NCBI RefSeq assembly: GCF_900176365.1
Contig: NZ_FWXY01000020.1
Coordinates: 27,947-91,946, forward strand
Direction of reading: 5' to 3'
From: Desulfocicer vacuolatum DSM 3385
GTDB lineage: Bacteria > Desulfobacterota > Desulfobacteria > Desulfobacterales > Desulfobacteraceae
DNA length: 64,000 nucleotides
Part shown: positions 1,509 through 41,031 of the stretch, one piece after another
Position numbering within the stretch: the stretch's first letter is position 1
How the letters are laid out: each line of letters opens with the position of its first letter
Made by a program: the position numbers and the translations under genes
The notes under the pieces: model-generated
Told to the model about the DNA's origin: nothing
The model's input: only the letters and a program-made list of their open reading frames with translations
The model's database searches: none

Positions 1509-2018
1509 ATGTTAAAAATAAAAAAATATTCAAATGGAAAATATTTCGACACTGAAGTAAAAGAGTATATCAAGTCAGAAACCCTGGCTGCAATGGTTAA
1601 CAACGGAGAAAAAATTCAGGTTGTCTTGGCCAGAACAGGTAAAGATATCACCGAACAGGTCATTGAACAGCTCTCCGGAAAAGAAGAGCGGAAAAAAGAG
1701 GGGGGGGGTGCCCCAACAGATAAAGTGATGAAATGGGTGGGCGAAATCATTGATTCAAAAATAGACAAAGTAATGGACATTATAAAATTACCCACCCGGG
1801 AGCAGGTTGCCGGTCTGGAAGCAACCATCAAAGAATTAAATGATAAAATTGATGCATTGTCACAGGAGAAAACAATAAAAGAGAGTTTTGCTTCTCCAGA
1901 AGGCCAAGAGAAATCGGTGACAGAAAAAACTGTGGATGCGAAAAAAGTGCAAGCAAATGAGAAAATTCCAGATAATAAACTGATGGCTGACAAAAAGGTG
2001 GGGATAAAAACTGTATAG
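1509..2018 (+). CDS. PhaR-type polyhydroxyalkanoate synthesis regulator, copy 1
   Basis: 169 residues. The N-terminal 55 residues (IKKYSNGKYFDTEVKEYI ... GKDITEQVIEQL) match the PHA accumulation regulator DNA-binding domain, which in PhaR represses phasin genes and also binds PHA granules. The C-terminal half holds a zipper segment (REQVAGLEATIKELNDKID) and then a Lys/Glu-rich tail. A GGAGG block precedes the ATG; a GTG at 1506 is an alternative. A run of nine G residues at 1700-1708 lies inside the coding region between the two domains and could slip. Neighbours are a phasin-like gene upstream and a second PhaR-domain gene 24 bp downstream, so the three are probably one transcription unit. 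Confidence 0.75.
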   Translation: MLKIKKYSNGKYFDTEVKEYIKSETLAAMVNNGEKIQVVLARTGKDITEQVIEQLSGKEERKKEGGGAPTDKVMKWVGEIIDSKIDKVMDIIKLPTREQVAGLEATIKELNDKIDALSQEKTIKESFASPEGQEKSVTEKTVDAKKVQANEKIPDNKLMADKKVGIKTV

Positions 2019-35419: not shown

Positions 35420-35509
35420 TTATATAACTGCCACGGGCAGACCGTATTATGATCCGGCTTTGTTGTGGGTGGAACCGGATCAGAATGCGGTCCGCCCGTG
35501 GCGGTTATT
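35420..35509. repeat. two R2 units in inverted orientation
   Basis: ACTGCCACGGGCAGACCGT and then GGAACCGGATCAGAATGCGG with CCGCCCGTGGCGG form one large palindrome. It overlaps the last codons of the convergent SPFH gene (stop at 35505), and lies back to back with the hbd terminator. Confidence 0.85.
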
Positions 35510-36359
35510 TTAACGCGCCGATGATACCCTTGACAGCTGCGGGCAGATCTGCCGGCAATACCACCACTTTGGAATTCTGGGAGGTGGATACGTTTTTCAG
35601 AGCTTCAATGTATTTTTCACCCAACAGGTACAGCATGGGCAATTCCTTGTCCTGGATGGCAGAGGTGACCTTTTCTATGGCCAGCTGGCTTGCCTTGGCA
35701 AGGACAATCTGGGCTTCGCCATCCCGCCGGGAGGCCTCCACCCGGCCTTCAGCCTGGAGAATGGCAGCGGACTTATCACCTTCAGCCCGGGTGACGGTGG
35801 CCCGTCTTTTCCGCTCCGCTGCGGCCTGCTCTTCCATGGCTGCCTGCATGGTGGGGGACGGATTGATGTCCTGGATTTCCACGGTTTTCAATGCAATGCC
35901 CCAGTCGGAAATATCATCTGATATGGCATCCTTTAACCGGGTGCGGATGAGGTTGCGGTTGGAAAGGGCTTCATCCAGATCCATCTCTCCCACAATGGAC
36001 CGGAGGGAGGTTTGAACCAGGGTTTTGATGGCTGCCTCATAATCATCCACCCCATAAACGGCTTTATCTGGAAAAAGAATGTTGATATAGGCCACGGCAT
36101 TGGTGATGATCACAGCATTGTCCTTGGTGATCACTTCCTGGCTGGGAATATCCAGCACAATGTCCTTGGTGATCACTTTATAGGCCACCTTGTCCATGTA
36201 AGGAATAATAATATTCAATCCGGGATTCAGTGTTTTACTGTATTTTCCCAGACGCTGTACCACATGTTTATTTCCCTGGGGCACAATACGCACCCCCAGG
36301 CTGATGGTGACTATCACTAAAATTAAAAAAAATCCCGCAACAACAAGTCCTGAACCCAT
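35505..36359 (-). CDS. SPFH/Band 7 membrane protein (QmcA/stomatin-like, paraslipin)
   Basis: 284 residues. One N-terminal membrane segment (LVVAGFFLILVIVTISLGV), then the SPFH domain (RIVPQGNKHVVQRLGKYSKT, ITKDNAVIITNAVAYINI) and a helical region (EEQAAAERKRRATVTRAEGD) for oligomerisation. Such proteins form membrane microdomain rings together with an NfeD partner, which is encoded just upstream. AGGAGGA precedes the ATG. Its 3' end runs into an R2 palindrome. Confidence 0.92.
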   Translation of the reverse strand: MGSGLVVAGFFLILVIVTISLGVRIVPQGNKHVVQRLGKYSKTLNPGLNIIIPYMDKVAYKVITKDIVLDIPSQEVITKDNAVIITNAVAYINILFPDKAVYGVDDYEAAIKTLVQTSLRSIVGEMDLDEALSNRNLIRTRLKDAISDDISDWGIALKTVEIQDINPSPTMQAAMEEQAAAERKRRATVTRAEGDKSAAILQAEGRVEASRRDGEAQIVLAKASQLAIEKVTSAIQDKELPMLYLLGEKYIEALKNVSTSQNSKVVVLPADLPAAVKGIIGALK

Positions 36360-36521
36360 GGTTATTCCTCCTGAATATTGGTTTTGAAATTAATTCATGG
36401 TAAATATTCGGTCAGCACCCCATTTTTACCTGTTTTGGCCTGTTCACACAGCACAATAGTATGCTACGCAGTCCCAAACAGGTACCCAAACATTTACATT
36501 AGCAATCCGAATATTTACAAT

Positions 36522-36977
36522 TCATGTATTGATTATTTTAACAATCAAGGTATTTCCAGATACATCCACCACCTGGACCCGGTCTCCCATGTGGGTATTT
36601 TTATGACATATAAAGGCCCATTGCTCTGATCCTAACACCGGTACGGTAAACTTCATTACCCCTCTTGTGTCTGTGCTGGCAGGTTTTACCACCAGCCCGG
36701 ACTCCCCCAGAACCGCTTCCAGGGAGATACCCGCTTTGGTTTTATCTTCCATTTTCATTTTGAAAAACTTGAACCATAAAATAGTAAAAAAGATGGAGGC
36801 CAGGGTCCAGGAAAAGAGTTGAAGGCCAAGGGAAAGTTGGGGAATCGCCCACATGACGGCCGCCACAAGAAGAGCGCCCAGGCCAAACCAGATAATGGTG
36901 AAACTGGGTATTATCAATTCAGACATGATTAGAACCATGGCAAACACTAACCAGTACCATGCTTTGATTTGCAACAT
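36522..36977 (-). CDS. NfeD-like membrane protein
   Basis: 151 residues. Three to four hydrophobic segments (WYWLVFAMVLIMSELIIPSF, LLVAAVMWAIPQLSLGL, WTLASIFFTILWFKFF) then a C-terminal OB-fold domain (GLVVKPASTDTRGVMKF, GDRVQVVDVSGNTLIVK). This is the short, protease-less NfeD type that partners with SPFH proteins. AAGGAG lies upstream of the ATG. It precedes the SPFH gene by 162 bp in the same direction. The 325-bp region upstream (36978-37302) contains no other gene. Confidence 0.9.
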   Translation of the reverse strand: MLQIKAWYWLVFAMVLIMSELIIPSFTIIWFGLGALLVAAVMWAIPQLSLGLQLFSWTLASIFFTILWFKFFKMKMEDKTKAGISLEAVLGESGLVVKPASTDTRGVMKFTVPVLGSEQWAFICHKNTHMGDRVQVVDVSGNTLIVKIINT

Positions 36978-37302
36978 TTTTGTTCTCCTTTTTCATTGTA
37001 GAAGAGTTTTGGGGAACATCTTTGATCAAATAGATACGATTAAAGCTGAAAAGTCAAGGGGCACTGGGGAATCGATAAATTTTTATATTTAAGTCTGATT
37101 CCATTTGCAAGGTTACTGTGTCGTAATTTGGATTTACAAAAATGGTGCTGTGTTCTCCTATTGACCTGTGGATGTAAAAAGGGCACAATGAAAATTATGG
37201 GTATAGATATTTGCCGCAACAAAGGTTAAAATTCTTATGATTTCAAAAAATACCTGGATGTTTCGAATTGTTGAGCGTTTACGAAGTATATATATTAAGG
37301 AA

Positions 37303-37485
37303 CTCAACTTTCGGTGTTCGCATTTCGTGGTGGGGTCAGGCTTTCGTTATTGACATTATCGAGGTTTTTTTCGTTGGCAAAGGCCTTGGTCGATAACATC
37401 AATAACAAAAGTCTGCCCCGTCGGCACACTGACCCCATCGGTACATTTAAAAATGCCGGCTTTGAAATGAAGCCCGAAAGTTGAG
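37303..37485 (+). repeat. R1 element copy 2, inserted at the hgcA ribosome binding site
   Basis: 183 bp between perfect 12-bp inverted repeats CTCAACTTTCGG / CCGAAAGTTGAG, flanked by the 8-bp duplication TTAAGGAA (37295-37302 and 37486-37493). The right-hand duplication supplies the AAGGA Shine-Dalgarno of hgcA, 5 nt before its ATG. The internal hairpin arms are present. Confidence 0.93.
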
Positions 37486-37497
37486 TTAAGGAATCCC

Positions 37498-38703
37498 ATG
37501 ACTGCTTTGATGAGTCAAATGCCGGAACAATTGGAAGAATTATCAAGTTCAACTGATTTTACATTGTCCACAAAGAGTGTGAAAATATTATCCTCCATGC
37601 CAGACAATGGTGGATCATATTATTCTAATTTAAAACTACAGCCCTTGGAAACCCATGAAAAGGCAGGCTATCAACTCTGTTCGCATGTGGAAGATTTTAT
37701 CTTCACCAAGGCAGGCACAGTGCCTAAGATCAAGACTCAATTGAGTCGGGATGATATTTTCTCCACGATTATGGTTCGGTGTGGAATTGGCCGAAATAAT
37801 TACCGCGTGGCTCCGGGTTTGTATGGTGTGGGGGAGCCTGGCAGAACTTCTGAGGTGTTGGTGACTGCAAATTTTAAACTATCTTTTGATCATTTAAGGC
37901 AAGAACTTAAAGGGATTAATGTCTGGATTCTGGTGTTGGATACCCGGGGAGTCAATGTTTGGTGCGCTGCAGGAAAAGGCACTTTTTCCACCAGTGAACT
38001 GGTTCACCGAATTGAAAGCACCGGCCTTAATCTTGTGGTGGACCATAAAAGAGTTATTGTCCCCCAGCTTGGAGCCACTGGAGTATCGGCACGTTTGGTG
38101 CAGGAACGGTGTGGTTTTCGGGTGGTGTTTGGTCCCATAAGATCCCGGGACATGGTTGAATTTTTACAAAACCGGCGAAGGGTGACTCCCGGCATGCGCC
38201 AGATCACATTTACTTTGGCCGAACGATTTGTTTTAACCCCGGTGGAAATTCGTATTGCAGCCAAATCTGTTTTTATTATGGCTTTGGCTTTGGTGTTTAT
38301 TTCTGGTATTGGCCCTCAGATCTTTTCCCTGGAACAGGCGTGGAACAAGGGGCGTACCGGCATTGTAATGATTTTAACGGGAGTCTTATCCGGTACGGTG
38401 GTGACTCCGGTGCTGCTGCCCTGGCTGCCGTTTCGGCAGTTTGCTGCCAAGGGAATTGTTTCAGGCAGTGTGCTGGCTGCCACTCTTTTATTCTTTTTGC
38501 CCCTTACCCAGGGGGGTATTAAAGGATCAATGGCTCTTTTTCTTTTTTCCGTTGCCATCAGCTCCTATTTTGCAATGGGGTTTACAGGAGCGACGCCTTT
38601 CACATCTCCTTCCGGGGTGGAAAAGGAGATGAAACGATTTATTCCGATTCAGGCCATATTAATGTTAATTTCAATGGTGTTATGGATTTATTCGTCATTT
38701 TAG
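37498..38703 (+). CDS. hgcA: mercury methylation corrinoid protein HgcA
   Basis: 401 residues. The cap-helix signature NVWCAAGK is present, with the cobalt-coordinating Cys at residue 156, within the corrinoid-binding domain (PGLYGVGEP, VLVTANFKLSFD, WILVLDTRGVNVWCAAGKG). Five membrane segments follow from about residue 260 (SVFIMALALVFISG, IVMILTGVLSGTVV, IVSGSVLAATLLFFLPL, ALFLFSVAISSYFAMGF, IQAILMLISMVLWIY). HgcA transfers a methyl group from its corrinoid to Hg(II), with HgcB as reductant; its native role is unknown. The N-terminus is about 60 residues longer than in ND132 HgcA (where the Cys is at 93). The RBS lies in the target duplication of an R1 element. Confidence 0.97.
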   Translation: MTALMSQMPEQLEELSSSTDFTLSTKSVKILSSMPDNGGSYYSNLKLQPLETHEKAGYQLCSHVEDFIFTKAGTVPKIKTQLSRDDIFSTIMVRCGIGRNNYRVAPGLYGVGEPGRTSEVLVTANFKLSFDHLRQELKGINVWILVLDTRGVNVWCAAGKGTFSTSELVHRIESTGLNLVVDHKRVIVPQLGATGVSARLVQERCGFRVVFGPIRSRDMVEFLQNRRRVTPGMRQITFTLAERFVLTPVEIRIAAKSVFIMALALVFISGIGPQIFSLEQAWNKGRTGIVMILTGVLSGTVVTPVLLPWLPFRQFAAKGIVSGSVLAATLLFFLPLTQGGIKGSMALFLFSVAISSYFAMGFTGATPFTSPSGVEKEMKRFIPIQAILMLISMVLWIYSSF

Positions 38704-38751
38704 AGTCTTTATGTTAAACTCCGCCCAAAGCCTTGGAATCATGGGGACTTC

Positions 38752-38805
38752 AAACTTCGTTGTGGGCAGATCGAGATCAGAATAGGTTCCGCCCATGGCG
38801 GTTAT
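38752..38805 (+). repeat. R2 repeat between hgcA and hgcB
   Basis: TTCGTTGTGGGCAGATCGAG, then GGTTCCGCCCATGGCGG and TTAT; a single unit that ends just before the hgcB Shine-Dalgarno. As a stem in the hgcAB mRNA it could affect the ratio of the two products. Confidence 0.8.
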
Positions 38806-38823
38806 TCAGGAGTGAAAAATAAT

Positions 38824-39114
38824 ATGCAAAATTTGAGGTATTTGGATGGGGTTTCAACCCTTAAGCTTTCCCAGAAACTCTGTGTGGGCTGTGGACTTTG
38901 CATTGAGGTGTGTCCCCATGGGGTATTTGTGCTGGATGAGCATAAAGCCCATATCCAAGATCTTGATGGGTGTATGGAGTGTGGAGCATGTGTGAATAAT
39001 TGTCCCACAAGCGCCATTTCTGTGACCCCGGGAGTGGGCTGAGCTGCTTATATTATCCAGGTTTGGATAAAGGGTAAAGAAAATGCTTCCTGCGGCATTG
39101 GAGGATGTTGTTAA
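38824..39114 (+). CDS. hgcB: HgcB ferredoxin with in-frame UGA, predicted selenoprotein
   Basis: Reading through TGA at 39040-39042 as selenocysteine gives 96 residues. Residues 1-72 hold two 4Fe-4S motifs (CVGCGLCIEVCPHG and CMECGACVNNCP). Codon 73 is the UGA, exactly where HgcB has its conserved Cys73 after the PGVG phrase. The frame then continues AAYIIQVWIKGKENASCGIG and ends GCC, the vicinal Cys pair typical of HgcB C-termini, before TAA. A SECIS-like hairpin lies 10 nt after the UGA. HgcB is the electron donor of HgcA and may carry Hg(II) on its cysteines. AGGAG precedes the ATG by 11 nt. Standard gene callers would stop at 39042 and give a truncated product. Confidence 0.88.
39053..39070 (+). 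promoter_or_regulatory. bacterial SECIS-like hairpin in hgcB
   Basis: TTATCC-AGGTTT-GGATAA: 6-bp stem and 6-nt loop. The loop differs by one base from the AGGUCU loop of the E. coli fdhF SECIS, and 16 nt separate UGA from the loop (17 in fdhF). SelB would bind the GGU of such a loop. Confidence 0.75.
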
Positions 39115-39187
39115 TTGTGAGGACTTAAACCATTGCCTGTTTTTTTGTTATGGGGTATAAAAAATTATTTTATTGATAAATTAGTTA

Positions 39188-39214
39188 AAAACCTGCTCGT
39201 TTGAGCAGGTTTTT
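39188..39214 (+). terminator. intrinsic terminator after hgcB
   Basis: AAAACCTGCTC / GAGCAGGTTTT perfect 11-bp stem with a GTTT loop and trailing T residues; ends the hgcAB transcription unit after the read-through stop at 39114, not after the UGA. Confidence 0.92.
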
Positions 39215-39266
39215 ATGTTTATTGACCACTTGGAATGTATCCAAAACAGATAGACAGGTGTTTATA

Positions 39267-40019
39267 GTGAAGACAGAGTTAATTGCGATTTCAGAGCTTA
39301 GGGTTGAAGCACCTTTTTCATCCCTTTTTCCCATTGGTAAAGAGACCCTGGAGGCCATTGCCACGGATATGAGAGCCGGTGGGTTTGATGATAGTTTTCC
39401 CCTTATTGTATGGGAAGGTAAAAATGTGGTGGTGGATGGTCATACCCGGTTTGCAGCGGCACGGGAGCTTAATCTTGAAGCGGTTCCTGTACTTTATAAA
39501 AATTTTGAAAATGAGGATGATGCCATCCTTTACTGTTTCCACATTCAGAGAAATCGCAGAAATCTTGCCGATGATGATATCTTAAGGTGCCTGGAGGTTT
39601 TGGATAATATTAACCCACCGGTCCGGGAAAATAAAAAGGAAAGAGATGGTACATCTTTGCCTCCTGTCACCAAAAAAGAGAAAGACATACTCCGGGCCAA
39701 GGAGCTTGGCACCAGTGTGGCTAAGGCCCAAAAGGCAAGAAAATTGCTTGAACATGGCGATGATGAGATTAAACAAAGTGTTGCTTCCGGGGAAAAATCC
39801 ATTAACCAGGCCTACCAGGAGGTTCAGGAACAACGCCGGGAAAGTGGTGAACTAAAGGGAAAGAGCACAACAGGGCTTGGCAACACGGCAAAGTACACAA
39901 AGGCATTGGGCAATTTTTTAAGAGAGCTTGCCAGGTTAAAGGATAATAATTGGGAAGATGTACCCAAACAGAAGGTGTTTGAGGATCTTGCCTCCATCAC
40001 AAAATTTGTTGAGAGTTGA
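39267..40019 (+). CDS. ParB-like nuclease-domain protein
   Basis: 250 residues. The N-terminal ParB/Srx-type domain shows WEGKNVVVDGHTRFAAARE and the FHIQRNRRNLADDDI box, followed by a helix-turn-helix-like region (ILRAKELGTSVAKAQKAR, SGEKSINQAYQEV). It is shorter than chromosomal ParB and lacks a ParA neighbour, so it is more likely an orphan regulator or a mobile-element protein than a partition factor. The GTG at 39267 has AGG at a suitable distance; a longer frame start at 39201 falls inside the hgcB terminator and is rejected. Confidence 0.8.
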   Translation: MKTELIAISELRVEAPFSSLFPIGKETLEAIATDMRAGGFDDSFPLIVWEGKNVVVDGHTRFAAARELNLEAVPVLYKNFENEDDAILYCFHIQRNRRNLADDDILRCLEVLDNINPPVRENKKERDGTSLPPVTKKEKDILRAKELGTSVAKAQKARKLLEHGDDEIKQSVASGEKSINQAYQEVQEQRRESGELKGKSTTGLGNTAKYTKALGNFLRELARLKDNNWEDVPKQKVFEDLASITKFVES

Positions 40020-40108: not shown

Positions 40109-40392
40109 TTTTTTATATGAAATACTCCGCAAATCTGTGGAGCGTTTCTATCTTTGTTGTGGGCAGAGCCGGATCAGAATACGGTCTGCCCGTGGCAATT
40201 ATATACAATGCAGCCTCCAAGGCAACCTCAGCAGAGCCGTCCCCCCGACGGGCAATAGGAACCGGACAATTGAGCTGTCTACAGTTCAGGTCCGGGCCCA
40301 TTGCCCGTCGGGGGGACGGCGGTATAATACCATTTTCTATATTTGTTGTGGGCGGATCGCGGTCAAAACAAGATTCGCTTGTGGCGGTTATG
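40109..40392 (+). repeat. composite R2-R3-R2 repeat
   Basis: An R2 unit (40109-40205), a complete R3 palindrome (40210-40332, CCCCCCGACGGGCAAT against ATTGCCCGTCGGGGGG, with CTGTCTACAGTT at the centre) and a second, diverged R2 unit (40336-40392) follow each other. Reading frames crossing it on both strands are repeat-encoded. It fills the whole 385-bp spacer between the ParB-like and LysE genes. Confidence 0.88.
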
Positions 40393-40404
40393 GGGAGATA
40401 AAAA

Positions 40405-41031
40405 ATGATATCTTTTGAAATTATTTTAACATTTTTTGCAGCTGCCATACTTCTGGCCCTGGCACCCGGGCCAGATAATATTTTTGTTTTGACACAGTCC
40501 ACATTGCGGGGCCGATGGGCCGGTGTGGCTGTCACCATGGGGCTTTGCACCGGCCTTGTTTTTCACAGCAGTGCTGTTGCTCTGGGGGTGGCCGCCATTT
40601 TTCAAACATCTGTGCTGGCTTTTTCTGCGCTTAAATTTGCCGGGGCCGGATATCTGATCTATCTGGCATGGCAGGCATTTCGTGCCTCGGCACAAAAATT
40701 TTCCGGGGGCTCCATGGAGACAATGTCATTTAAAAAACTCTATGGACGGGGAATTATTATGAATATCACCAACCCCAAGGTTTCCATTTTTTTCCTTGCT
40801 TTTTTGCCCCAGTTTGTTGTCCCGTCGGCGGGCAGCATTCCCCTTCAGATTTTGATGCTGGGTGGAATTTTTATTTTTGCCACCCTGATTGTTTTTGGCT
40901 CAATTGCCATGGTGGCCGGATACCTTGGGGAGCGAATGAATCAATCTCCAGGCATGCAGAAAATATTAAACCGTGTGGCTGGAACTGTATTTCTTGGACT
41001 TGCTCTGAAACTTGTCACCACACGCCAATAA
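40405..41031 (+). CDS. LysE/RhtB-family amino acid exporter
   Basis: 208 residues with about six membrane segments. The LysE-family start ALAPGPDNIFVLTQSTLRGR and the NPKVSIFFLAFLPQFV block are clear. Exports amino acids such as threonine, homoserine or leucine in characterised relatives; here the substrate is not known. GGGGAGAT lies just upstream of the ATG. Threonine degradation genes (kbl-tdh) and aspartate kinase lie within 5 kb, which fits a threonine/homoserine substrate, though this is only context. Confidence 0.88.
   Translation: MISFEIILTFFAAAILLALAPGPDNIFVLTQSTLRGRWAGVAVTMGLCTGLVFHSSAVALGVAAIFQTSVLAFSALKFAGAGYLIYLAWQAFRASAQKFSGGSMETMSFKKLYGRGIIMNITNPKVSIFFLAFLPQFVVPSAGSIPLQILMLGGIFIFATLIVFGSIAMVAGYLGERMNQSPGMQKILNRVAGTVFLGLALKLVTTRQ

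What the first reader, a model, noticed from the sequence alone, without database searches (positions are those of the whole stretch)
38824..39114. HgcB with selenocysteine in place of the conserved Cys73
The hgcB frame is interrupted by TGA at codon 73 (39040-39042), directly after the family phrase TPGVG. In characterised HgcB this position is the strictly conserved Cys73, which mutagenesis showed to be important for mercury methylation. After the TGA the same frame continues for 23 codons with HgcB-like sequence and ends in SCGIGGCC and TAA, the usual vicinal Cys pair. A random nonsense mutation would not be expected next to a SECIS-like hairpin and with the downstream frame fully preserved. 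A selenol ligand binds Hg(II) much more strongly than a thiol, so the change would bear on Hg transfer and on the native chemistry of HgcAB. I do not know of a described selenocysteine HgcB.
Basis: partly seen in the sequence, partly recalled or inferred. Interest (0 to 1): 0.96.

Follow-up and report, generated by a model that had tools for sequence, protein, structure and literature searches.

The report
Selenocysteine form of mercury-methylation protein HgcB
In this bacterium the mercury-methylation gene hgcB has a UGA codon, likely read as selenocysteine, where most relatives outside its bacterial family have a cysteine; such a selenoprotein HgcB was already predicted in print, and every hgcB-carrying genome searched in the same family carries this codon.

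Summary
HgcB (NF040864, 124 bits) has an in-frame TGA at codon 73 (39040-39042), where the family has Cys73; hgcA lies just upstream. The frame goes on under purifying selection to a Cys-Cys end, and a SECIS-like hairpin starts 10 nt after the TGA. The genome has selA, selB, selD (itself with an in-frame TGA) and tRNA-Sec. All 55 genomes of this family with a full HgcB match have TGA at codon 73, against 2 of 18 in other families of the order. The TGA loci form one clade in an HgcA-only tree. In 59 unique TGA loci the hairpin stem is identical; the only (nearly) synonymously fixed codon columns, four of them, lie in the hairpin, and Cys-type loci have none. Chance mutation and plain termination are very unlikely. 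It is not new as a kind: Sec-HgcB with a GVGU motif was proposed by Haft & Gwadz 2023, which I could not read but which two papers that I saw in part cite for it. Added here: fixation in one family, one origin in the sample, and codon-level SECIS evidence. The role of the selenol is inference from published Cys73 work.

The parts
37498..38703 (+). hgcA, corrinoid protein of the HgcAB pair (cap-helix motif NVWCAAGK, Cys not Sec)
   Evidence: NF040863 425.5 bits, cut-off 275; motif in the translation and
38824..39114 (+). hgcB with one in-frame TGA, 96 residues plus TAA
   Evidence: NF040864 124.4 bits, cut-off 99; sequence
38881..38913 (+). first CxxCxxCxxxCP [4Fe-4S] motif (residues 20-30, Pro follows)
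   Evidence: sequence; Fer4 domains
38971..39003 (+). second CxxCxxCxxxCP [4Fe-4S] motif (residues 50-60, Pro follows)
   Evidence: sequence; Fer4 domains
39040..39042 (+). TGA codon 73, likely selenocysteine, aligned with the conserved Cys73
   Evidence: TGA at this codon in 55 of 55 genomes of the family with a full HgcB match
39053..39070 (+). predicted SECIS hairpin: UUAUCC, loop AGGUUU, GGAUAA
   Evidence: 45-nt fold -8.9 kcal/mol, 28-nt hairpin alone -6.3; stem identical in 59 of 59 unique TGA loci
39106..39111 (+). C-terminal Cys-Cys pair
   Evidence: sequence; tail ends CC in 54 of 59 unique TGA loci
39186..39215 (+). terminator-like hairpin after hgcB
   Evidence: 13-pair stem, pattern scan; a consensus match only, found on both strands

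Best explanation
The hgcB gene here carries an in-frame UGA at codon 73 that is likely read as selenocysteine, in place of the family's conserved Cys73, directed by a predicted SECIS hairpin just downstream and by the likely products of the genome's selA, selB, selD and tRNA-Sec genes. Shown: the TGA, the constrained frame after it, the hairpin unchanged in relatives, the decoding genes, one clade of TGA loci in an HgcA tree. Inferred: that UGA is decoded in this cell. Inferred from published models and mutants of the Cys form: Sec73 would sit at the start of the helix after the second [4Fe-4S] motif and would act as the soft-metal relay of HgcAB, exchanging Hg(II) or methyl-Hg with the C-terminal Cys pair and the cobalamin of HgcA; a selenolate would bind the metal more tightly than a thiolate (recalled chemistry). 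It is a member of the Sec-HgcB kind proposed by Haft & Gwadz 2023.
For: HgcB and HgcA family matches. Decoding genes in the genome: tRNA-Sec 75.8 bits, selB 380 bits, selA 609 bits, selD 363 bits with its own TGA near its N-terminus. TGA at codon 73 in 55 of 55 genomes of the family with a full HgcB match. Codons 83-89 after the TGA have pN/pS 0.057 at pS 0.739, so they look translated; hairpin codons 77-82 have pS 0.093, against 0.666 in Cys-type loci. Of 45 amino-acid-conserved degenerate codon columns in 50 unique TGA loci exactly 4 are synonymously invariant and all 4 lie in the hairpin; 0 of 36 in 35 unique Cys loci. The genome's selD has a like apical element after its TGA (no chance estimate made). 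TGA loci form one clade in an HgcA-only tree, support 0.999, one change. A 93%-identical database protein ends at residue 72, GVG, as a gene caller would cut it (its DNA was not seen).
Against: No protein-level evidence. The hairpin of this sequence alone is not significant (z = 0.37; 16% of synonymous recodings make all six pairs). 7 of the 55 TGA genomes lack a selB match over the cut-off (G003, G024, G044, G045, G064, G081, G084); five are 63-81% complete and G044 has a partial 226-bit match, but G024 is rated 100% complete and also lacks a tRNA-Sec match over the cut-off. selB is as common without Sec-HgcB: 50 of the 57 TGA genomes against 77 of the other 88 (counted), so it is permissive, not diagnostic. 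In an HgcB-only tree one Cys database protein, P0002, falls with the TGA clade (59 TGA plus P0002, support 0.878), so a return to Cys, or a Cys sister, is possible. The AlphaFold2 model was too poor (pLDDT 46.9) to place residue 73.
Confidence: 0.92

Rival explanations
1. The TGA is an ordinary stop: the cell makes a 72-residue HgcB and the downstream frame is a relic.
For: A 72-residue database relative ends just there (P0057); TGA ends 15 of 39 long mechanical ORFs of the window, so it is a normal stop in this genome.
Against: Codons 83-89 after the TGA have pN/pS 0.057 in 59 unique TGA loci and the tail ends Cys-Cys in 54 of 59. The hairpin codons are fixed at synonymous sites in TGA loci and not in Cys loci. 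C73A abolishes methylation in the Cys form (PMC7305189, passage).
Confidence: 0.04
2. UGA is read through by another amino acid (near-cognate Trp or Cys suppression, or a reassigned code).
For: TGA aligns with Cys; nothing at the protein level was tested.
Against: TGA ends 15 of 39 long window ORFs, so it is not reassigned; a full Sec decoding set is present; such reading would not need a fixed hairpin.
Confidence: 0.02
3. Sequencing error or a recent random nonsense mutation in this assembly.
For: A draft assembly of 80 contigs.
Confidence: 0.01
4. The protein has Sec73, but its role is not Hg ligation: a redox partner of the [4Fe-4S] clusters, a cobalt ligand, or a step of an unknown native reaction of HgcAB. 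(This overlaps with the best explanation in all but the role.)
For: The native function of HgcAB is not established (recalled); the published model puts Cys73 about 13 A from cluster B (PMC7305189, passage).
Against: Cys73 is needed for Hg methylation and is proposed as methyl-Hg acceptor there, but that is in the Cys form.
Confidence: 0.4

Closest known systems
Selenoprotein HgcB, NF040864 form with motif GVGU (Haft & Gwadz 2023, J Bacteriol; listed in PMC13188914)
   Same: Sec at the residue after GVG, as here
   Different: Nothing basic that I know of. That paper's species range and SECIS evidence are unknown to me (not held); this window is one more member, in a genus with no other genome among the 145.
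Cys-type HgcB (D. desulfuricans ND132 HgcB with Cys73; 35 and 80 unique Cys loci here)
   Same: Two [4Fe-4S] motifs, GVG before residue 73, Cys-rich tail in most, the PGVGxAxYII helix start in the nearer loci
   Different: TGT or TGC at codon 73, no hairpin constraint, Thr, Ser or Gly at residue 80 in 63 of 80 where TGA loci have Val in 57 of 59 (L029 dropped)
SelD of the same genome (G000:C63), likely a selenoprotein
   Same: In-frame TGA with an apical element AUCCAGG...UGGAU about as far downstream
   Different: Different protein; its 47 nt after the TGA fold at -20.3 kcal/mol

Membership tests
HgcB (NF040864) | Score over NCBI's curated cut-off (99 bits) | tested here: met
   124.4 bits with TGA read as a residue
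HgcB (NF040864) | Two CxxCxxCxxxCP motifs and partner hgcA next to it | tested here: met
HgcB (NF040864) | Cys at position 73 (strictly conserved in PMC7305189) | tested here: not met
   TGA. A Sec form at this site is already listed under the same family, so this makes it a variant, not a non-member.
Bacterial selenoprotein | In-frame TGA aligned with Cys of homologs, kept in relatives | tested here: met
   55 of 55 in the family; Cys in 16 of 18 elsewhere in the order
[quoted passage not shown]
   7-bp stem, 4-nt loop GGUU 17 nt after TGA, -8.9 kcal/mol for the 45 nt after the TGA; the 28-nt hairpin alone is -6.3
Bacterial selenoprotein | selA, selB, selC, selD in the genome | tested here: met
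Bacterial selenoprotein | Selenium found in the protein | not testable with these tools
   needs 75Se or mass spectrometry
Mercury methylator | Methylates Hg in culture | not testable with these tools
   hgcAB present; activity not shown

The most novel reading that the evidence does not exclude
In one whole bacterial family the selenol at HgcB residue 73 was gained once and is kept in every hgcB-bearing genome sampled, so their HgcAB would run a distinct, selenium-dependent chemistry, and selenium supply would gate their methylmercury formation; a second, independent Sec site may exist in the HgcB tail of a distant lineage (G402).
Probability: 0.2. Interest if true: 0.8.

Novelty: new member of a known kind. 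Interest (0 to 1): 0.42.

Why it matters
HgcAB makes methylmercury, and residue 73 of HgcB is needed for it in the Cys form. A family in which that codon is fixed as TGA would link selenium supply to a mercury pathway and gives a natural handle on what residue 73 does. It also means that a gene caller that stops at TGA would cut hgcB at residue 72 in this family.

Tried and rejected
Rfam SECIS_1 in the own genome: no match, but its 14 control genomes were silent too, so it says nothing. Rfam over 38500-39500: 21 matches, all under their gathering scores, most on or near the terminator. Sec in HgcA (listed in print as motif CU): the cap-helix motif is NVWCAAGK in every row printed (100 loci held the pattern, which allowed U; rows with the same last 200 residues were printed once); other HgcA sites were not tested. 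In the phylum sample seven places were flagged with a TGA: the own gene; G365, G183, G352 and G414, which have Cys at 73 and end at a TGA after the tail; G402, a tail-site TGA; and G257, a 60-bit match that does not look like HgcB. Solved structures: ferredoxin-like proteins for HgcB in the 60 of 120 rows shown, and corrinoid iron-sulfur proteins for HgcA (3 rows). AlphaFold2 model of HgcB with 34 rows: pLDDT 46.9, not used. Covariation of the stem cannot be tested, since it does not vary. One search counted 60 unique TGA and 80 unique Cys loci; one, L029, was out of register (cut at its contig end) and was dropped, which leaves genome G012 out of the 59; its hairpin is intact in the print-out. 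Locus L150, also cut at its contig end, may be out of register in the Cys set (it is not in the 35). In one search four database rows were out of register (the pattern caught an earlier stretch) and two of 120 had no such site.

Full report
What is there. The frame 38824-39114 reads as HgcB with one TGA at codon 73. With the TGA taken as a residue it scores 124.4 bits to NCBI's HgcB model (cut-off 99) over profile positions 1-93 of 93, and the gene before it, 37498-38703, scores 425.5 bits to HgcA (cut-off 275). A terminator-like hairpin follows at 39186-39215 (a pattern match only). TGA is an ordinary stop in this genome: it ends 15 of 39 long mechanical ORFs (180 residues or more) of the window.

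The decoding set. The own genome (5.04 Mb, 80 contigs, 98.4% complete, 3.1% contamination) has tRNA-Sec at 75.8 bits, over the cut-off of 47, selB at 380 bits, selA at 609 bits and selD at 363 bits. SelD itself has an in-frame TGA, the eleventh codon of the matched stretch, so the genome has at least one further likely selenoprotein. After that TGA comes an apical element AUCCAGG...UGGAU, like the one in hgcB (no chance estimate made).

Relatives. One search covered 145 genomes, the own one included. In the window's family (f1, 86 genomes) 55 have a full HgcB match (126 bits or more); I read the DNA of all 55 and each has TGA at codon 73. In other families of the order 18 genomes have a match over 115 bits; 2 have TGA at this codon (G101, G135) and 16 have Cys. 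Six genomes with weaker matches (seven matches, 83-92 bits) have no stop in them and were not read further. In a sample of 395 genomes of the phylum, 122 have a match at E 1e-15 or better (115 over the cut-off). Seven places were flagged with a TGA; only the own genome's is at codon 73. Matches without a flagged stop were not all read, and some weak ones end before that codon.

One origin in the sample. An HgcA-only tree of 127 non-identical rows (54 TGA, 73 Cys; rows with under 300 residues of HgcA were left out; some genomes may be in it twice, from two collections) puts all TGA loci in one clade, support 0.999, with one change by parsimony; adding HgcB without site 73 gives support 1.0. No row in that clade has Cys. 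A limit: in an HgcB-only tree with 118 database proteins added, one Cys protein, P0002, falls with the 59 TGA loci (clade of 60, support 0.878). Its DNA and its HgcA were not seen, so a return to Cys or a Cys sister cannot be ruled out.

The RNA signal. The hairpin is UUAUCC-AGGUUU-GGAUAA, its loop 16 nt after the TGA. In this sequence alone it is unremarkable (61-nt fold z = 0.37; 16% of synonymous recodings make all six pairs and 6.2% fold as well). Across relatives it is not. In 50 unique TGA loci, 45 degenerate codon columns keep their amino acid in at least 90% of loci; exactly four never vary synonymously, Ile77 ATT, Ile78 ATC, Gln79 CAG and Ile82 ATA, and all four are in the hairpin. 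In 35 unique Cys loci none of 36 columns is fixed, and none has six Watson-Crick pairs (two have six if G-U counts). All 50 TGA hairpins fold at -6 kcal/mol or lower, against 1 of 35 Cys ones. In the enlarged set of 59 unique TGA loci the stem is identical in 59; Gln79 is CAA once; loops are AGGUNU in 56, AGGGCU in 2 and AAGUUU in 1. Synonymous difference pS is 0.093 in the hairpin codons against 0.404 in codons 74-76, 0.739 in codons 83-89 and 0.717 in codons 33-72 of the same loci, and 0.666 in the hairpin codons of 80 Cys loci. These measures do not correct for shared ancestry, but the other codons of the same loci are the control. Residue 80 is Val in 57 of 59 TGA loci, likely because GUN makes the loop; 63 of 80 Cys loci have Thr, Ser or Gly (L029 dropped). 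The downstream frame looks translated: codons 83-89 have pN/pS 0.057, and 54 of 59 tails end in Cys-Cys.

Against. selB is over the cut-off in 48 of the 55 TGA genomes of the family (counted from the rows); five of the seven misses are 63-81% complete and one has a partial match, but G024 is rated 100% complete and also lacks a tRNA-Sec over the cut-off. With G101 and G135, selB is over the cut-off in 50 of 57 TGA genomes and 77 of the other 88, so it does not separate the forms. No protein evidence exists here. The structure model failed.

How it would work. In print, Cys73 is strictly conserved, C73A abolishes methylation, loss of either Cys94 or Cys95 is tolerated while loss of both cuts activity by 95%, and a model has the tail carry Hg(II) to the cobalamin and hand methyl-Hg to Cys73 (PMC7305189, passages). 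SAM is given as the methyl donor (PMC11588087, title and passages). I infer that Sec73 takes the place of Cys73 in that relay. That a selenolate binds Hg more strongly than a thiolate is general chemistry, recalled. Whether Hg is the natural substrate is open.

What is known. PMC13188914 (abstract and outline, passages, sections 5 and 6, and part 2 of 3 of the references) lists HgcB, NF040864, motif GVGU, one Sec, from Haft & Gwadz 2023, and HgcA with motif CU. [quoted passage not shown] I could not read that paper. Eight library searches listed no paper that, by its title and abstract start, reports fixation in one family, a single origin, or the synonymous invariance; I opened only PMC13188914, PMC11588087 and PMC7305189, and most subscription papers are not in the library.

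Verdict. A real, very likely translated Sec-HgcB; a known kind, with a fuller evolutionary and SECIS case than the finding itself offered.

Noticed in passing
L206 (genome G402, contig 363, about 1537-1818, minus strand): HgcB of a distant lineage has Cys at 73 but an in-frame TGA in its tail, PPD[TGA]SDGCGDGPSSPSSCC*, where its congener G203 has Cys (PPQCGCSGSGCC). selB and tRNA-Sec are present and the stretch after the TGA folds at -10.6 to -11.3 kcal/mol (no shuffle control). A candidate second Sec site, one genome only (4 of 5 genomes of its family have hgcB, the other 3 without a flagged stop).
   Followed up: partly
L085 and L159 (genome G024): A second in-frame TGA in the tail of a TGA-73 HgcB (SC[TGA]DSGCC, where relatives mostly have Gly); this genome has no selB or tRNA-Sec match over the cut-offs.
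   Followed up: partly
L161/L060 (G068) and L160 (G083): Tails of two TGA-73 hgcB genes hold a further stop (TAG; TGA and TAG), so their usual Cys-Cys end is interrupted.
   Followed up: no
G030 contig 1, 4038761-4038883: A partial second hgcB-like copy (query residues 55-96, 78% identical, one TGA) about 7 kb from the full gene.
   Followed up: no
P0002 (database protein): A Cys-type HgcB that groups with the TGA clade in an HgcB-only tree: a possible return from Sec to Cys, or a Cys sister.
   Followed up: partly
38750-38805, also 35452-35528, 40146-40222, 40335-40411: A dispersed intergenic repeat lies between hgcA and hgcB; 45 matches in the own genome, itself included, the others 78-91% identical, on both strands (40 of 363 candidates were scored, so more may exist).
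   Followed up: partly
37301-37319 and 37469-37487: Inverted repeat (19 nt, 89%) with 149 nt between its arms, just upstream of hgcA.
   Followed up: no
G000 contig 63, 144301-145227 (L120): selD of this genome has an in-frame TGA near its N-terminus, followed by AAK, so it is likely a selenoprotein itself.
   Followed up: partly
35505-36977, minus strand: A Band 7/SPFH gene beside a 151-residue ORF without a Pfam match at E 1e-5.
   Followed up: no
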